Origin: Armatimonadota bacterium
GTDB lineage: Bacteria; Armatimonadota; Fimbriimonadia; Fimbriimonadales; Fimbriimonadaceae
Assembly (NCBI GenBank): GCA_018268395.1
Contig: JAFDWQ010000001.1
Coordinates: 458,306-522,305 of the forward strand
Reading direction: 5' to 3'
Length of the DNA stretch: 64,000 bases
In this document: positions 27,167 to 60,995 of the stretch, in pieces
Layout: the number at the start of each line of letters is the position of its first letter
Position numbering within the stretch: position 1 is the stretch's first letter
The notes under the pieces: generated by a model
Seen by the model: only the letters and a program-made list of their open reading frames with translations
The model's database searches: none
What the model was told of the DNA's origin: nothing
Translations under genes and position numbers: made by a program

Positions 27167-27816
27167 AACGGCGCGGCTTTACCATGATCGAATTGATGAT
27201 GACGGTCGCTCTGAGCGCGATGGTCATCGGCGTCATGGCCGGTATGTACGGGTTCACGTCGACCCGATTGGCCGACGCCTACACCAAGGCCGTGCTCGTC
27301 GACCAGACGACGGACGTCGCCGATAGGATCGAAGCGTCGTTCCGGAACGCCACCGTGTGCATCGAACAAGACGGGGGCAACGCCGTCCAGTGCCTGATGC
27401 CCGCCAACGGCGTCGACACCGACGGCGACGGACATTTGGACACCTACTATCCGGACGACAACAACGCCGACGGGACGGGCGCGTACTCGGCCGGCAACTA
27501 CGTCTGGTTCTTCATGGCCGGCGCCAGCAGCACCTACAAGTCAGGGTCTGGCTTCCTGTGGCGTGCGGAAAAGTCCAACAGTTCGGATCCTTCGCTGGGG
27601 GACATCGACCGGACGTTCTCGCACTACTACAACACCAGGCTCCGCTACCCGCTCGTCAAGTCCGTCACCTTTACCGTCGACATGGCCGAACACACCGTGA
27701 CGTTCAAGGTCGTCGGCACGACCCGACTGTCCGAGGAGTCCACGACCAACGCGACCGAGGACGGCACGATCCGGACGATGACCGTCAAGCGCAAAGTCCG
27801 CTGGAGGAACGGATGA
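27163..27816 (+). CDS. Prepilin-like protein (GspJ/PilW type)
   Basis: 217 aa from ATG 27163. MKRRGFTMIELMMTVALSAM is a full prepilin signature (cleavage G^F, Glu at +5). The C-terminal domain has a Ca-binding-like Asp cluster (GVDTDGDGHLDTYYPDDNN) of the kind found in calcium-stabilised pseudopilins and dockerin loops. Likely a minor pseudopilin. Stop overlaps the start of the following gene. Confidence 0.8.
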   Translation: MKRRGFTMIELMMTVALSAMVIGVMAGMYGFTSTRLADAYTKAVLVDQTTDVADRIEASFRNATVCIEQDGGNAVQCLMPANGVDTDGDGHLDTYYPDDNNADGTGAYSAGNYVWFFMAGASSTYKSGSGFLWRAEKSNSSDPSLGDIDRTFSHYYNTRLRYPLVKSVTFTVDMAEHTVTFKVVGTTRLSEESTTNATEDGTIRTMTVKRKVRWRNG

Positions 27817-28898
27817 ACCGAAAGCGCCGAGGCAGCGTCGCCGTTTTGGCCATGGTCATGACCGTCTCGACGACCGCCTTGGCCTTGGCCCTCGTGGCGC
27901 TGAGCGGCTCCGTCCGGACCAAAGAGACGCGCCTTGAAGACCGACGGACCGCGCAAGACGCGTTCGACGGCGCCGTCGACACGATCGTCGACCGCGCCGA
28001 CCGAGGAGTGTTGGTCCTGCCGGACTCCTTGAGCCTCCGGATCGGCGACTCGGAAGTGTCGGTCGACGTTTCCGACGCCACCGGGCTCAACATCGACCTC
28101 CTCGGTATCTCCGTCACGACGAGCGCGTATGCCATCCTCGTCGACGCGTCCGTGAAGACGGCCCACGGGACGTACAAGTACAAAAGAGTGATCGGACGGG
28201 GGCGGCTCTCCAGCCCGTGGTACCAAGCCCTCTATCTGGACGAGGGATTGACCACTCTGCGGGTGATCAAGACCGGATCCCCCGGCCTTGAAGGCGACGC
28301 CTGGTTCAACGGCTCGGTCACCTTTCTCGGACTCGGAACGTCGTTCGACGGCGATCTCACCGCGACCGGGCTGATCCTGCCATTGACGGTCAGCGTCTCG
28401 GGGAAGAAGACCGCGAGCTCCCGACCGATCGCTTTTCCGACCGTCGTCCCGGCCCAATATTCGGCGGTCGCGACGACGACGTATTCCACCGACAAGACCT
28501 TCGACGGACTGGTGTTCGTCTCACCGGGCGCCGGCGCCTACCCTCTGATCTTCGTCAACGGTAACCTCACCATCAAGGGCGACATCACCGGATCCGGCGT
28601 CATCTTTGCGACCAGGGTCACGATCAACGGCAACGTCCGGACGGGCGTGAACGACCACGTGGTGATCATCACGAACGGGAACATGGACATCGATCCTGGT
28701 GCGAACTCGATCGACGCTTACCTCTACTGCGGGAACAAGCTGACGATCGGCACCACTGGGACGATGCGCTCCTTCTTGTCCGGCGTCGTCACCAAGTCGG
28801 TCTCCATCGGCGACAACGTGACCTTTAGCTGTGACCCGTACGTTCGGGACAACCCCGCCGAAGCTTTCAAGTTGAAACTGCCCGGCTTCTGGCCTTGA
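27813..28898 (+). CDS. PilX-like surface protein with beta-solenoid C-terminus
   Basis: 361 aa from ATG 27813. N-terminus RKRRGSVAVLAMVMTVSTTA has the PilX-like layout (short basic leader ending in G, then a helix), but no Glu at +5. The second half is a run of short beta repeats (GNLTIKGDITGSGVIFATRV, TINGNVRTGVNDHVVII, NSIDAYLYCGNKLTIGTT) that look like a bactofilin-like/beta-solenoid fold. Probably a minor pilus or matrix component secreted with the two pilins before it. Its last 32 bases overlap the repeat gene on the other strand. Confidence 0.6.
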   Translation: MNRKRRGSVAVLAMVMTVSTTALALALVALSGSVRTKETRLEDRRTAQDAFDGAVDTIVDRADRGVLVLPDSLSLRIGDSEVSVDVSDATGLNIDLLGISVTTSAYAILVDASVKTAHGTYKYKRVIGRGRLSSPWYQALYLDEGLTTLRVIKTGSPGLEGDAWFNGSVTFLGLGTSFDGDLTATGLILPLTVSVSGKKTASSRPIAFPTVVPAQYSAVATTTYSTDKTFDGLVFVSPGAGAYPLIFVNGNLTIKGDITGSGVIFATRVTINGNVRTGVNDHVVIITNGNMDIDPGANSIDAYLYCGNKLTIGTTGTMRSFLSGVVTKSVSIGDNVTFSCDPYVRDNPAEAFKLKLPGFWP

Positions 28899-29289
28899 AC
28901 CCGCCTTGCACGGCTTTGCGGTCGATCTCAGTGGCTTTGCGGTCGCTTAGCATGGCTTTGCGGTCGATCTCAGTGGCTTGGCGGTCGCTTAGCATGGCTT
29001 TGCGGTCGCCCTGAATGGCTTTACAGTCGCTCTGAATGGCTTTACTGTCGCTCTGAATGGCTTTACAGTCGCTCTGAATGGCTTTACAGTTGCCCTGAAT
29101 GGCTTTACAGTCGCCCTGAATGGCTTTGCGGTCGCCCTGAATGGCTTTACAGTCGCCCTGAATGGCTTTGCGGTCGCCCTGAATGGCTTTACAGTCGCCC
29201 TGAGTGGCTTTGCAGTCGCTTTCAACGGCTTCGAGGCGCCAACGAACGCTCTCCGAGTGCTCGGACGACGTTTTCGTCACATCGGACAC
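28867..29289 (-). CDS. Heptad-repeat protein, probable coiled coil
   Basis: 140 aa from GTG 29289 (a second GTG lies at 29280). The body is built of 7-residue units with consensus SDxKAIQ (variants GDCKAIQ, GDRKAIQ, IDRKATE, SDRKAML), one unit per 21 bp, which would give a long continuous alpha-helical coiled coil. No enzyme domain, signal or membrane segment. The N-terminal 25 residues (SDVTKTSSEHSESVRWRLEA) are unique. No Shine-Dalgarno, so expression is uncertain; all three frames of the repeat are open because 21 is a multiple of 3. Cys occurs in many of the units, so disulphide cross-linking is possible. Confidence 0.5.
   Translation of the reverse strand: MSDVTKTSSEHSESVRWRLEAVESDCKATQGDCKAIQGDRKAIQGDCKAIQGDRKAIQGDCKAIQGNCKAIQSDCKAIQSDSKAIQSDCKAIQGDRKAMLSDRQATEIDRKAMLSDRKATEIDRKAVQGGFKARSRAVST
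28911..29225. repeat. 15-copy 21-bp tandem repeat
   Basis: Fifteen uninterrupted 21-bp units (plus-strand consensus TGGCTTTACAGTCGCCCTGAA). Units 1-4 are of two alternating types (GATCTCAG and GCTTAGCA ends), units 5-14 a third type, suggesting separate duplication events. It keeps the reading frame, codes for heptads, and likely varies in copy number between strains. Confidence 0.95.
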
Positions 29290-29428: not shown

Positions 29429-29457
29429 TTGACTTGACGCGCGGACAGGGGTAGAGT
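29429..29457 (+). promoter_or_regulatory. Putative sigma-70 promoter for a short transcript
   Basis: TTGACT (29429-29434), 17-bp spacer, TAGAGT (29452-29457). No coding region lies downstream on this strand, only the terminator at 29481. Confidence 0.4.
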
Positions 29458-29463
29458 TGGTTT

Positions 29464-29518
29464 TTGTTTTAGAAATCGCGGTCCGAACCGGCATCCTGGT
29501 TTGCCGGTCGGACTTTTT
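29464..29518 (+). ncRNA. Candidate small RNA, about 55 nt
   Basis: Defined only by the promoter-like sequence 7 nt before it and the hairpin plus T run at its end. It contains no open frame. Its 3' half is the terminator hairpin. It lies beyond the end of the REC-GGDEF-HD-GYP gene on the opposite strand. No known RNA family recognised. Confidence 0.25.
29481..29518 (+). terminator. Rho-independent terminator
   Basis: Arms GTCCGAACCGGCA (29481-29493) and TGCCGGTCGGAC (29502-29513) pair with one bulge; TTTTT follows at 29514-29518. Read on the minus strand the hairpin lacks a T run, so it serves plus-strand transcripts. Confidence 0.7.
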
Positions 29519-29530
29519 CTCCCCGCGGTT

Positions 29531-31117
29531 CTAAGCGACCTGGTCGCCGGCTTCGGCGTCCAAGACCCTCAAGAACGATTCGACGACGTCCGGTGCGAAC
29601 TGTGTGCCGGAACAGGCCCTGATCTCGTCGACCGCCTGCCAGACCGTGACCCCGAGGCGGTGCGGCCGGTCCGCCGTCATGGCGCAAAAGGCGTCGGCGA
29701 CCGCGATCACCCTCGAGGGCAGCGGGATGTCCTCGCCCTTCAACAGGTTGGGATAGCCCTTGCCGTCCCACCGTTCGTGGAGCGCCTCGATGACCGGGGC
29801 CACGAAGCTCAAGGCCGGGATGCGCCCGACGATCTGGGCTCCGACGACGGGATGGGCCCTGACGGTCTCCCACTCTTGTTCGTTCAAGGGGCCCGCCTTT
29901 TGAAGGATGGCGTCCGGGATCGCGACTTTGCCGATGTCGTGGAGCCGGGCGGCCATGCCGATCACGTGGGCTTCCCGTTTGCCGAGCCCCATGTCGGCGG
30001 CGATGCGCAACGCGAGCGCTTCGACGGACTTCGTGTGGTCGCTCTCATAGACGTCCCGCGTCCCGACCATCGTGACCAGGGCTTCGATGACTCCGGCCAG
30101 GGCTTGTTCTTCTCGGGAGCCCTTGGTCTCGCAGAGAAGCGCGAGGCTGGCATCGGCGTCCTTGGTCGTCCGGACCTGGTTCCTCCCGAGCGACTTCGCG
30201 ACGTACATGGCGCGGTCGGCGGCTTCGACGACCGTCCCCAGGTCGGCCCCGTCTTCCGGGATGCAGGCGACGCCGATGGAGCAGGTCACAAGGGCCTCCG
30301 GCGCGGCTTCGAAGCGGTAGCGGCTGACCGCTTGGCGCAACCTTTCGGCGACGGTGAGCCCGATTTCGACGTCGGCACTCGGCAGGACGACGACGAACTC
30401 TTCGCCGCCCCAACGTCCGCAAAGGCCGTCGTTCCGAAGATGGTGCTTTAGGACGGCGCCGAACTCCCGGAGGACCGAGTCACCGCAAATGTGCCCGAAG
30501 CTGTCGTTCAAGGCCTTGAAGTGGTCCAGGTCGAGGAACAGGACGCAAGCGGTCAGGCCTTCTTCCAGACACTTTCGCGACTCTGCGAGGAGCGTCGTCA
30601 CGATGGAGCCGTGGTTCGCAAGACCGGTCAGTGGATCGGTCCTCGCGATGTGCTCGAGCCGGGCGTTCTCCGCTTCAAGACGGGCGGCCTGTCGGGCCAC
30701 TTGCTCGGCGAGTTGCAGGTCTCGGAGTTTGGCGACGTCCTGCGCTTGCTTCAGTTTGAGCAGTGCGAGGATCCGGACGTTCAGTTCGGTGGGGTCGACC
30801 GGGCGGCAGATAAAGTCGTTGACGCCCGCTTGGACCGCGTCCAGGTGGCCTGCCATTCCTGTGACCGCCGTGAGCATGATCACGGGCACGTCCGCGCGCC
30901 CGTGACCGTGGCGCACCTTGCGGGTGAAGTCGATGCCCGAGCCGTCGTCCAACCGCGATGCGACGAGGACGAGGTCGATCGAGGCGTCGAGGGCGTCCCA
31001 AGCCTCTCCGACCGTCCGGCATTTCCGGCACTGGAAGCCCTGGCCGGCCAACACCGAACAAAGTTCGGCGTTACAATCGCCGTCCGGATCGACGACCATG
31101 ATCCACGGTCCGCTCAA
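29531..31117 (-). CDS. Response regulator with GGDEF and HD-GYP domains
   Basis: 528 aa from TTG 31117 (AAGGAG 12 nt upstream); the open frame continues upstream but with degraded codon use, and ATG 31099 is another option. Residues about 5-120: receiver domain (IMVVDPDGDCNAEL, LVLVASRLDDGSGIDF, PVIMLTAVTGMAG). About 165-325: GGDEF with intact RWGGEEFVVV active site and no canonical RxxD inhibitory site at the expected place. About 345-520: HD-GYP with ARLHDIGKVAIPD and ERWDGKGYPNLL. Both synthesis and breakdown of c-di-GMP are thus possible from one protein. No histidine kinase is adjacent. Confidence 0.9.
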   Translation of the reverse strand: MSGPWIMVVDPDGDCNAELCSVLAGQGFQCRKCRTVGEAWDALDASIDLVLVASRLDDGSGIDFTRKVRHGHGRADVPVIMLTAVTGMAGHLDAVQAGVNDFICRPVDPTELNVRILALLKLKQAQDVAKLRDLQLAEQVARQAARLEAENARLEHIARTDPLTGLANHGSIVTTLLAESRKCLEEGLTACVLFLDLDHFKALNDSFGHICGDSVLREFGAVLKHHLRNDGLCGRWGGEEFVVVLPSADVEIGLTVAERLRQAVSRYRFEAAPEALVTCSIGVACIPEDGADLGTVVEAADRAMYVAKSLGRNQVRTTKDADASLALLCETKGSREEQALAGVIEALVTMVGTRDVYESDHTKSVEALALRIAADMGLGKREAHVIGMAARLHDIGKVAIPDAILQKAGPLNEQEWETVRAHPVVGAQIVGRIPALSFVAPVIEALHERWDGKGYPNLLKGEDIPLPSRVIAVADAFCAMTADRPHRLGVTVWQAVDEIRACSGTQFAPDVVESFLRVLDAEAGDQVA

Positions 31118-31570
31118 GTCCGGGCGAGGCTCCTTGGAAGCGTGTCCCCCCGGAGCGCGAGCTGACGATCGGATCGTGCCCAAAGCCCGGCCCCTCGGCC
31201 CTGCAGGGCGAAGGTCGGACTTGCCGTTCTGGCGCCCGCCTTCCGACCGGAAGGCGCGGTACCGGCAAGGTCGCCGGCACCGTCCACATGGCTCTCGAAC
31301 ACCTTCATAATGTCGGTCGGAATCCACGTTCGGTTCAGGGCGGATCAGAGACATTCGAAGGCCTTTCCAACGGCCCTTCCGGGGCGTTTCCAGGGCATGG
31401 GCTAAGAACGTGAGCCTGCATCCCATCGGCTGCAGCGGTTCACGAACGGACGACGGGCCGAGAGCGGGGAGGGCGGACGATCATGACCCCTGACCGGGAG
31501 CGTGCGACCTGTGAGCCGGCCGACGTCTCGCCCGTCAGAGCGCGACCGACCGTCGCGAGGTAAAGGACCG
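31118..31570. other. Leader region, no supported gene
   Basis: About 450 bases. The minus-strand frame of the preceding gene continues to 31426 but the codon pattern is poor. No other gene, RNA or strong terminator seen. It ends at the left border of the Fic island. Confidence 0.4.
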
Positions 31571-60597: not shown

Positions 60598-60995
60598 ACG
60601 TCTCGTCCAAACGTGCACCTGCGCCGGTTGTGGAAGGAGCAAGGAAACCGGGGCCGGCGCCCGGCCAGAAGGTCCGGAAGCCCCTGACCTCCTGCCCCCT
60701 TCTCTCTGCCGCACCTGGGACAAGAAAGGGAGAGGGGATCCGGACGCGCCGGAACCTAGCGGCACCTGTCCTGTCGTCGGCCCTTGCGAAGCGGCGATGG
60801 TCCGAACTTGAGGATCCGAGGGCTCGGTGCGAACGTCGAGACGACAAGGCTGGAACACGCTGTTCCCCTCACCTTCCCGTCACCCCGCCGTCACCTTGCC
60901 GTCACCTCGAGGTGAAGGTGGGTTGTGGGCGAAAAGCGGGCGAAAGGACGGTACAAGCCTGTTGTAGCGGTGCGATGCACCGATAACCACGATAG
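60598..60995. other. Intergenic region with short tandem 11-mers, no gene seen
   Basis: About 400 bases, mixed strands, no supported gene or terminator. At 60872-60915 there are four consecutive 11-bp words of the form CCttcCCGTCA (CCTTCCCGTCA, CCCCGCCGTCA, CCTTGCCGTCA, CCTCGAGGTGA), then AGGTG repeats. Confidence 0.4.

What the first reader, a model, noticed from the sequence alone, without database searches (positions are those of the whole stretch)
28867..29289. 21-bp, 15-copy heptad minisatellite that encodes a coiled coil
The unit is exactly one heptad (SDxKAIQ), so every duplication lengthens the coil by one heptad without a frame change. Type alternation shows several rounds of expansion. 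Tail-to-tail overlap with the prepilin-like operon hints at co-evolution or antisense control of the third pilin gene.
Basis: seen in the sequence. Interest (0 to 1): 0.6.

Follow-up and report, generated by a model that had tools for sequence, protein, structure and literature searches.

The report
Non-coding 21-bp repeat after pilin gene
A run of fifteen 21-letter DNA repeats sits just past the end of a pilus-like gene in a Fimbriimonadaceae bacterium; it could be read as a coiled-coil protein, but the evidence says it is an ordinary non-coding repeat array, one of many in this family that start right after a gene's stop codon.

Summary
The array is real: 15.2 copies of 21 bp at 28912-29231, with a 42-bp higher-order unit, inside a 140-aa minus-strand frame. 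The coiled-coil gene reading is not supported. In the ORF frame, changes between units are synonymous as often as chance predicts (0.26 against 0.265). Codon usage is at about the 5th percentile of real genes. Unselected ORFs of this length occur every ~670 bp in this genome. No homologue was found in 85 family genomes, 84,980 species genomes or viral contigs. If translated it would be one long helix. The array starts 13 bp after the stop of a prepilin-like gene, but none of 9 homologues of that gene has an array, so co-evolution is not supported. A second, older 21-bp array in the same genome has 17/21 consensus identity, different flanks, and only a 9-bp half conserved. A survey of 2.02 Mb from five family genomes gave 74 intergenic arrays. 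Their periods are commonest at 7, 11 and 20-22 bp, and 22 start within 20 bp of a stop codon (5.8 expected). Best reading: a non-coding, stop-anchored intergenic minisatellite that grew by slippage or unequal exchange. The stop anchoring is the only surprising part.

The parts
28912..29231 (+). 15.2-copy array, unit GGCTTTRCRGTCGCYCTGAAT, 42-bp higher-order structure; orientation given as that of the upstream pilin-like gene
   Evidence: TRF; unit list
28912..28995 (+). pilin-proximal sub-array, units 1-4 (types A, B, A, B'), weak 10/11-bp half-repeat GGCTTTGCGGT + CGCTTAGCAT
   Evidence: lag-11 identity 0.43, p 0.04
28996..29231 (+). distal sub-array, units 5-15, C/D types alternating in 42-bp steps
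28867..29289 (-). 140-aa open frame through the array, judged accidental
28989..29225 (-). second open frame, 78 aa, through the same array
27813..28898 (+). third prepilin-like gene; its TGA (28896-28898) lies 13 bp before the array
   Evidence: no Pfam or NCBIfam family
29531..31426 (-). response regulator-GGDEF-HD protein, converging neighbour on the far side of the 632-bp gap
   Evidence: Pfam

Best explanation
A non-coding intergenic minisatellite. It lies in the 632-bp gap between two converging genes, and starts 13 bp after the stop codon of the third prepilin-like gene. Shown: array, position, 42-bp higher-order structure, a second diverged array of the same unit in the genome, no protein-level constraint, and a family-wide excess of intergenic arrays starting within 20 bp of a stop codon. 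Inferred: it arose from a short 10-21-bp repeat next to the stop codon and grew by replication slippage or unequal exchange, first in 21-bp and then in 42-bp steps. It is tolerated there because the region only becomes 3' untranslated RNA of the pilin-like operon. The 140-aa heptad frame is a by-product of a stop-free unit whose length is a multiple of 21.
For: Array and higher-order structure. In the ORF frame 12 of 47 changes are synonymous, null mean 0.265, p 0.63. Coding score -0.04 bits/codon, against a gene median of 0.33 and 5th percentile of -0.04. 694 unselected ORFs of 140 aa or more in 464 kb, one per 669 bp. No homologue of the protein, nor of its non-repeat N-terminus. Sister array G000:C10:162,804-163,044 with consensus identity 17/21 (0 of 20,000 random 21-mers reach 17), found by profile at E 7e-7, though that model included it; flanks unrelated. 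74 intergenic arrays in 5 family genomes, 22 within 20 bp of a stop against 5.8 +- 2.3 expected, and 7 near starts against 8.2 expected. 9 homologues of the pilin-like gene have no array.
Against: AlphaFold2 on the single sequence gives one helix, mean pLDDT 93.8, and the non-repeat residues VRWRLEAVE keep the heptad register, so a real coil cannot be excluded. Unit changes are few and not independent, so the test of constraint is weak. The sister array conserves only a 9-bp half (GCTCTGAAT, p 0.015), which hints at selection on DNA or protein rather than pure drift. Array density itself is not special: other phyla gave a similar density.
Confidence: 0.68

Rival explanations
1. A small lineage-specific gene that encodes a 140-aa helical coiled-coil protein, antisense to the end of the pilin-like gene, varying in length by whole heptads.
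For: Open frame of 140 aa through 15 units with flanks in heptad register; AlphaFold2 single helix, pLDDT 93.8. True coiled-coil genes with 21-bp units exist in the same order (L006, L008). Open heptad frames antisense to a gene end also occur at G050 arrays.
Against: Neutral synonymous fraction, poor codon score, no homologue, Arg or Cys at most core a positions, no evident ribosome-binding site before the GTG by eye. Equally long ORFs arise by chance every 669 bp.
Confidence: 0.13
2. A DNA-level functional array: a 9-10-bp motif (GCTCTGAAT) repeated every 21 bp, two turns of the helix, so that a protein binds along one face or the DNA bends.
For: In the sister array 9 of 21 columns stay conserved while the rest decay (permutation p 0.015). 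Both arrays share that motif, and no third array exists in 84 other family genomes except GCTCTGGAT arrays in G050. Intergenic array periods are commonest at 7, 11 and 20-22 bp.
Against: In the window the other half is the conserved one (column entropies uncorrelated). The motif is not enriched outside arrays. The 10.5-bp half-repeat is weak in the window (p 0.11 overall). Most of the 11-bp signal comes from one genome, G022.
Confidence: 0.15
3. A decayed dispersed mobile element of the BrickBuilt sort: leader, tandem array and tail, moved by a transposase in trans.
For: Two arrays of one unit type at distant loci of one genome. In G050 a ~50-bp head plus a 21-bp array occurs at three loci, with a partial copy at a fourth.
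Against: Window and sister array share no flanks, and no terminal inverted repeats bound the window array. Two of the G050 loci come with a duplicated upstream gene, so that copying may be segmental.
Confidence: 0.12
4. A transcribed 3' regulatory or termination element of the pilin-like operon.
For: Position 13 bp after the stop, sense orientation; family-wide excess of arrays next to stops.
Against: RNA of either strand folds no better than shuffles (z +2.06 and +1.27). No Rfam match. Homologues of the operon do without it.
Confidence: 0.1

Closest known systems
BrickBuilt minisatellite-MITE of Porphyromonas gingivalis (PMC4596501)
   Same: intergenic array of a ~two-turn unit (23 bp); annotated ORFs inside it thought not to be translated; repeat number changes between strains in BrickBuilt
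   Different: BrickBuilt has leader and tail with inverted-repeat ends and 19 copies per genome; here no shared leader or tail and one sister array; unit is 21 bp
Prokaryotic satellites surveyed in PMC6749651
   Same: intergenic tandem arrays, species-specific unit families, many units a multiple of three
   Different: the survey reads multiples of three mainly as coding; here the multiple of three looks accidental
TAACTGA intergenic direct repeats of Beggiatoaceae (PMC4679880)
   Same: many intergenic short-unit arrays placed next to gene boundaries
   Different: 7-bp unit, placed just before start codons rather than after stops
Coiled-coil genes with 21-bp heptad units in the same order (L006, L008)
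   Same: 21-bp unit equal to one heptad, in-frame growth
   Different: those have full genes with a conserved non-repeat C-terminal domain and a sister gene in another genome; this one has none

Membership tests
protein-coding coiled-coil minisatellite | uninterrupted frame through all units and flanks | tested here: met
   140 aa, no stop
protein-coding coiled-coil minisatellite | purifying selection in the frame | tested here: not met
   synonymous fraction 0.26 against null 0.265
protein-coding coiled-coil minisatellite | homologous protein or conserved non-repeat flank elsewhere | tested here: not met
   the sister array has other flanks
protein-coding coiled-coil minisatellite | gene-like codon usage | tested here: inconclusive
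   -0.04 bits/codon, about 5th percentile of genes and within the range of wrong frames
protein-coding coiled-coil minisatellite | product made in the cell | not testable with these tools
   no expression data
intergenic minisatellite (VNTR type) | tandem units between genes | tested here: met
intergenic minisatellite (VNTR type) | copy number differs between strains | not testable with these tools
   no second genome of the species among the collections searched
BrickBuilt-like MITE | terminal inverted repeats bounding the array | tested here: not met
BrickBuilt-like MITE | several copies with common leader and tail in the genome | tested here: not met
   one sister array, flanks unrelated

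The most novel reading that the evidence does not exclude
The Fimbriimonadaceae carry a class of intergenic arrays with units of one or two helical turns (11, 21, 42 bp) that are laid down preferentially just after stop codons. This array and its sister are large members in which a 9-bp motif every 21 bp is kept by selection on the DNA.
Probability: 0.15. Interest if true: 0.6.

Novelty: new member of a known kind. Interest (0 to 1): 0.3.

Why it matters
It warns that a 21-bp intergenic array automatically mimics a heptad coiled-coil gene, with a convincing open frame and a confident helix prediction. The side result, that intergenic arrays in this family start within 20 bp of stop codons about four times more often than expected, could point to a mechanism that seeds repeats at gene ends.

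Tried and rejected
Coiled-coil gene: rejected on neutral variation, no homologues and the chance ORF rate. Co-evolution with the pilin-like gene: rejected on 9 homologues without arrays. Structured RNA: no. A strict 10.5-bp half-repeat linking the window to the (GGCTTTGC)n arrays of G022: attractive at first, but weak in the window (p 0.11; 0.04 for units 1-4), and outside G022 the two-unit pattern is no commoner than its reversed control. Sense-only rule for the G022 arrays: not upheld; about half lie sense after a stop, others before or between minus-strand genes. Lag autocorrelation of all post-stop regions: only slight peaks. Protein search hits in relatives: mostly other low-complexity arrays or real coiled-coil genes, not homologues.

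Full report
OBSERVATION. The array exists as described. TRF finds 28912-29231 with period 21 (15.2 copies) and period 42 (7.3 copies, 91% matches, no indels). The quoted coordinates are those of the minus-strand ORF 28867-29289, 140 aa. The unit occurs nowhere else in the 3.72-Mb genome at close identity. Intergenic shuffles of 464 kb of the same genome yield no array.

SETTING. Three prepilin-like genes run on the plus strand. The second has an N-terminal methylation motif (PF07963), the first a weak GspI match, the third no family. The third ends at TGA 28896-28898, and the array begins 13 bp later. On the other side a response regulator-GGDEF-HD protein ends at 29531 on the minus strand. 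The array is therefore in a 632-bp gap between converging genes. From the pilin side the units run A B A B', then C and D types in 42-bp alternation, so there were at least two rounds of growth.

IS IT A GENE? Between neighbouring units, 12 of 47 changes are synonymous in the ORF frame (0.26). Placing the same changes at random gives 0.265. The changes are not all independent, so this is a weak test, but it shows no constraint. A codon model trained on long ORFs of the window gives -0.04 bits per codon; real genes have median 0.33 and 5th percentile -0.04, and wrong frames reach that value in over a quarter of cases. Unselected ORFs of at least 140 aa occur once per 669 bp in this genome. Neither the protein nor its non-repeat N-terminus has a relative in 85 family genomes, in genome contigs or in viral contigs. 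AlphaFold2 gives a single helix of 137 residues with pLDDT 93.8. That shows what the product would be if made, and heptad-periodic sequence tends to fold so in single-sequence mode (own knowledge). In the coil register the a position is Cys, Arg or Ser (read), which is a poor core. Real coiled-coil genes with 21-bp units do occur in the same order (L006, L008). They differ in having a full gene with a conserved C-terminal domain.

DOES IT BELONG TO THE PILIN OPERON? The third pilin-like gene has homologues in 10 of 40 relatives. The 9 that could be read in frame show no array in the 600 bp after the stop. The HD neighbour has no close syntenic counterpart in the three other genomes of the genus. 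Co-evolution is not supported. Antisense control cannot be tested here.

A SISTER ARRAY. A BLAST search with the array gave a weak hit in the same genome at C10:162,885-162,937 (E 0.1). That place turned out to be another 21-bp array of about 13 units, in the same register. The two consensus units share 17 of 21 bases over all rotations and both strands; none of 20,000 random 21-mers, and none of 20,000 genomic ones, reached 17. A sequence profile of 42-bp double units finds only these two arrays convincingly in the genus, with a weak third at C1:866.5 kb (the profile includes the sister array, so its own score is by construction). Their flanks are unrelated, and the sister lies upstream of a different gene. 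In the sister, nine columns (GCTCTGAAT) are conserved while the others have decayed (permutation p 0.015). The homologous reading frame there carries Gly or Pro in most units. So the shared part is DNA, not a protein fold.

THE FAMILY-WIDE PICTURE. I sampled 2.02 Mb from five family genomes, called genes with a codon model and ran TRF. There were 74 intergenic arrays, against 5 in shuffled intergenic DNA. Commonest periods were 11 (19 arrays), 7 (10) and 20-22 (11). Twenty-two arrays start within 20 bp of a stop codon, where random placement gives 5.8 +- 2.3; 7 lie within 20 bp of a start, where 8.2 are expected. Caveats: most 11-bp arrays are from G022. Other-phylum loci show a similar density of arrays (those loci had been chosen for a repeat and were masked differently), so the density is not special. 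The stop-anchoring test was not run on other phyla. In G022 about 40 two-unit (GGCTTTGC)n sites occur, with none for the reversed pattern; several begin 1-20 bp after a stop, but others do not. In G050 a ~50-bp head plus a 21-bp array occurs at three loci with 4 to 10 copies or a different 42-bp unit, so units turn over while the place persists.

CONCLUSION. The most likely account is a non-coding minisatellite seeded next to a stop codon and grown by slippage or unequal exchange, with an accidental heptad frame. A coiled-coil gene remains possible (about 0.13). A phased protein-binding array is possible (about 0.15) because of the conserved 9-bp half in the sister. The nearest published objects are the BrickBuilt minisatellite-MITE of P. 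gingivalis (PMC4596501), the satellites of PMC6749651 and the TAACTGA repeats of PMC4679880. It fails the BrickBuilt tests of common leader/tail and terminal inverted repeats.

Noticed in passing
window 29429-29519 (+): Between the array and the HD gene: a sigma-70-like promoter (TTGACT-17-TAGAGT, 29429-29457) followed within ~30 bp by a hairpin and T-run (29487-29518), like a very short transcription unit or small RNA. No Rfam match.
   Followed up: partly
window 60863-60907: 11-bp array TTCCCGTCACC at a gene end, with a palindrome CACCTCGAGGTG at its edge. Similar 11-bp arrays built on hairpin arms at L076:5903-6039 and L088:7075-7211.
   Followed up: partly
L088 6379-6680 (G000:C1:866.4-866.7 kb): (GGCTTTGC)n array with 11/10 spacing and inverted copies downstream, apparently inserted in frame inside a 326-aa ORF.
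   Followed up: partly
G022 (JACOSL contigs; L029, L070-L073, L095-L124, L191, L199): Dozens of intergenic 11-bp arrays of at least two sequence families, (GGCTTTGCRRT)n and (GGACGATTGTC)n; the latter sometimes faces an inverted partner array.
   Followed up: partly
L285, L289, L297, L298 (G050): A ~50-bp head followed by 21-bp or 42-bp arrays at three loci and a partial, frame-broken copy at a fourth; two loci lie behind paralogous transporter genes and have different repeat units.
   Followed up: partly
L006 1070-1999 (-), L008 1179-2189 (+): Related genes in two genomes of the order, each with 21-bp heptad repeats (SHQxLxE) in a coiled coil before a conserved C-terminal domain that looks nuclease-like; true coding counterparts of the window array.
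   Followed up: no
L003 1573-1710 (G019): About 20 copies of a 7-bp repeat TGATTGC just before a start codon, like the intergenic heptamers of other bacteria.
   Followed up: no
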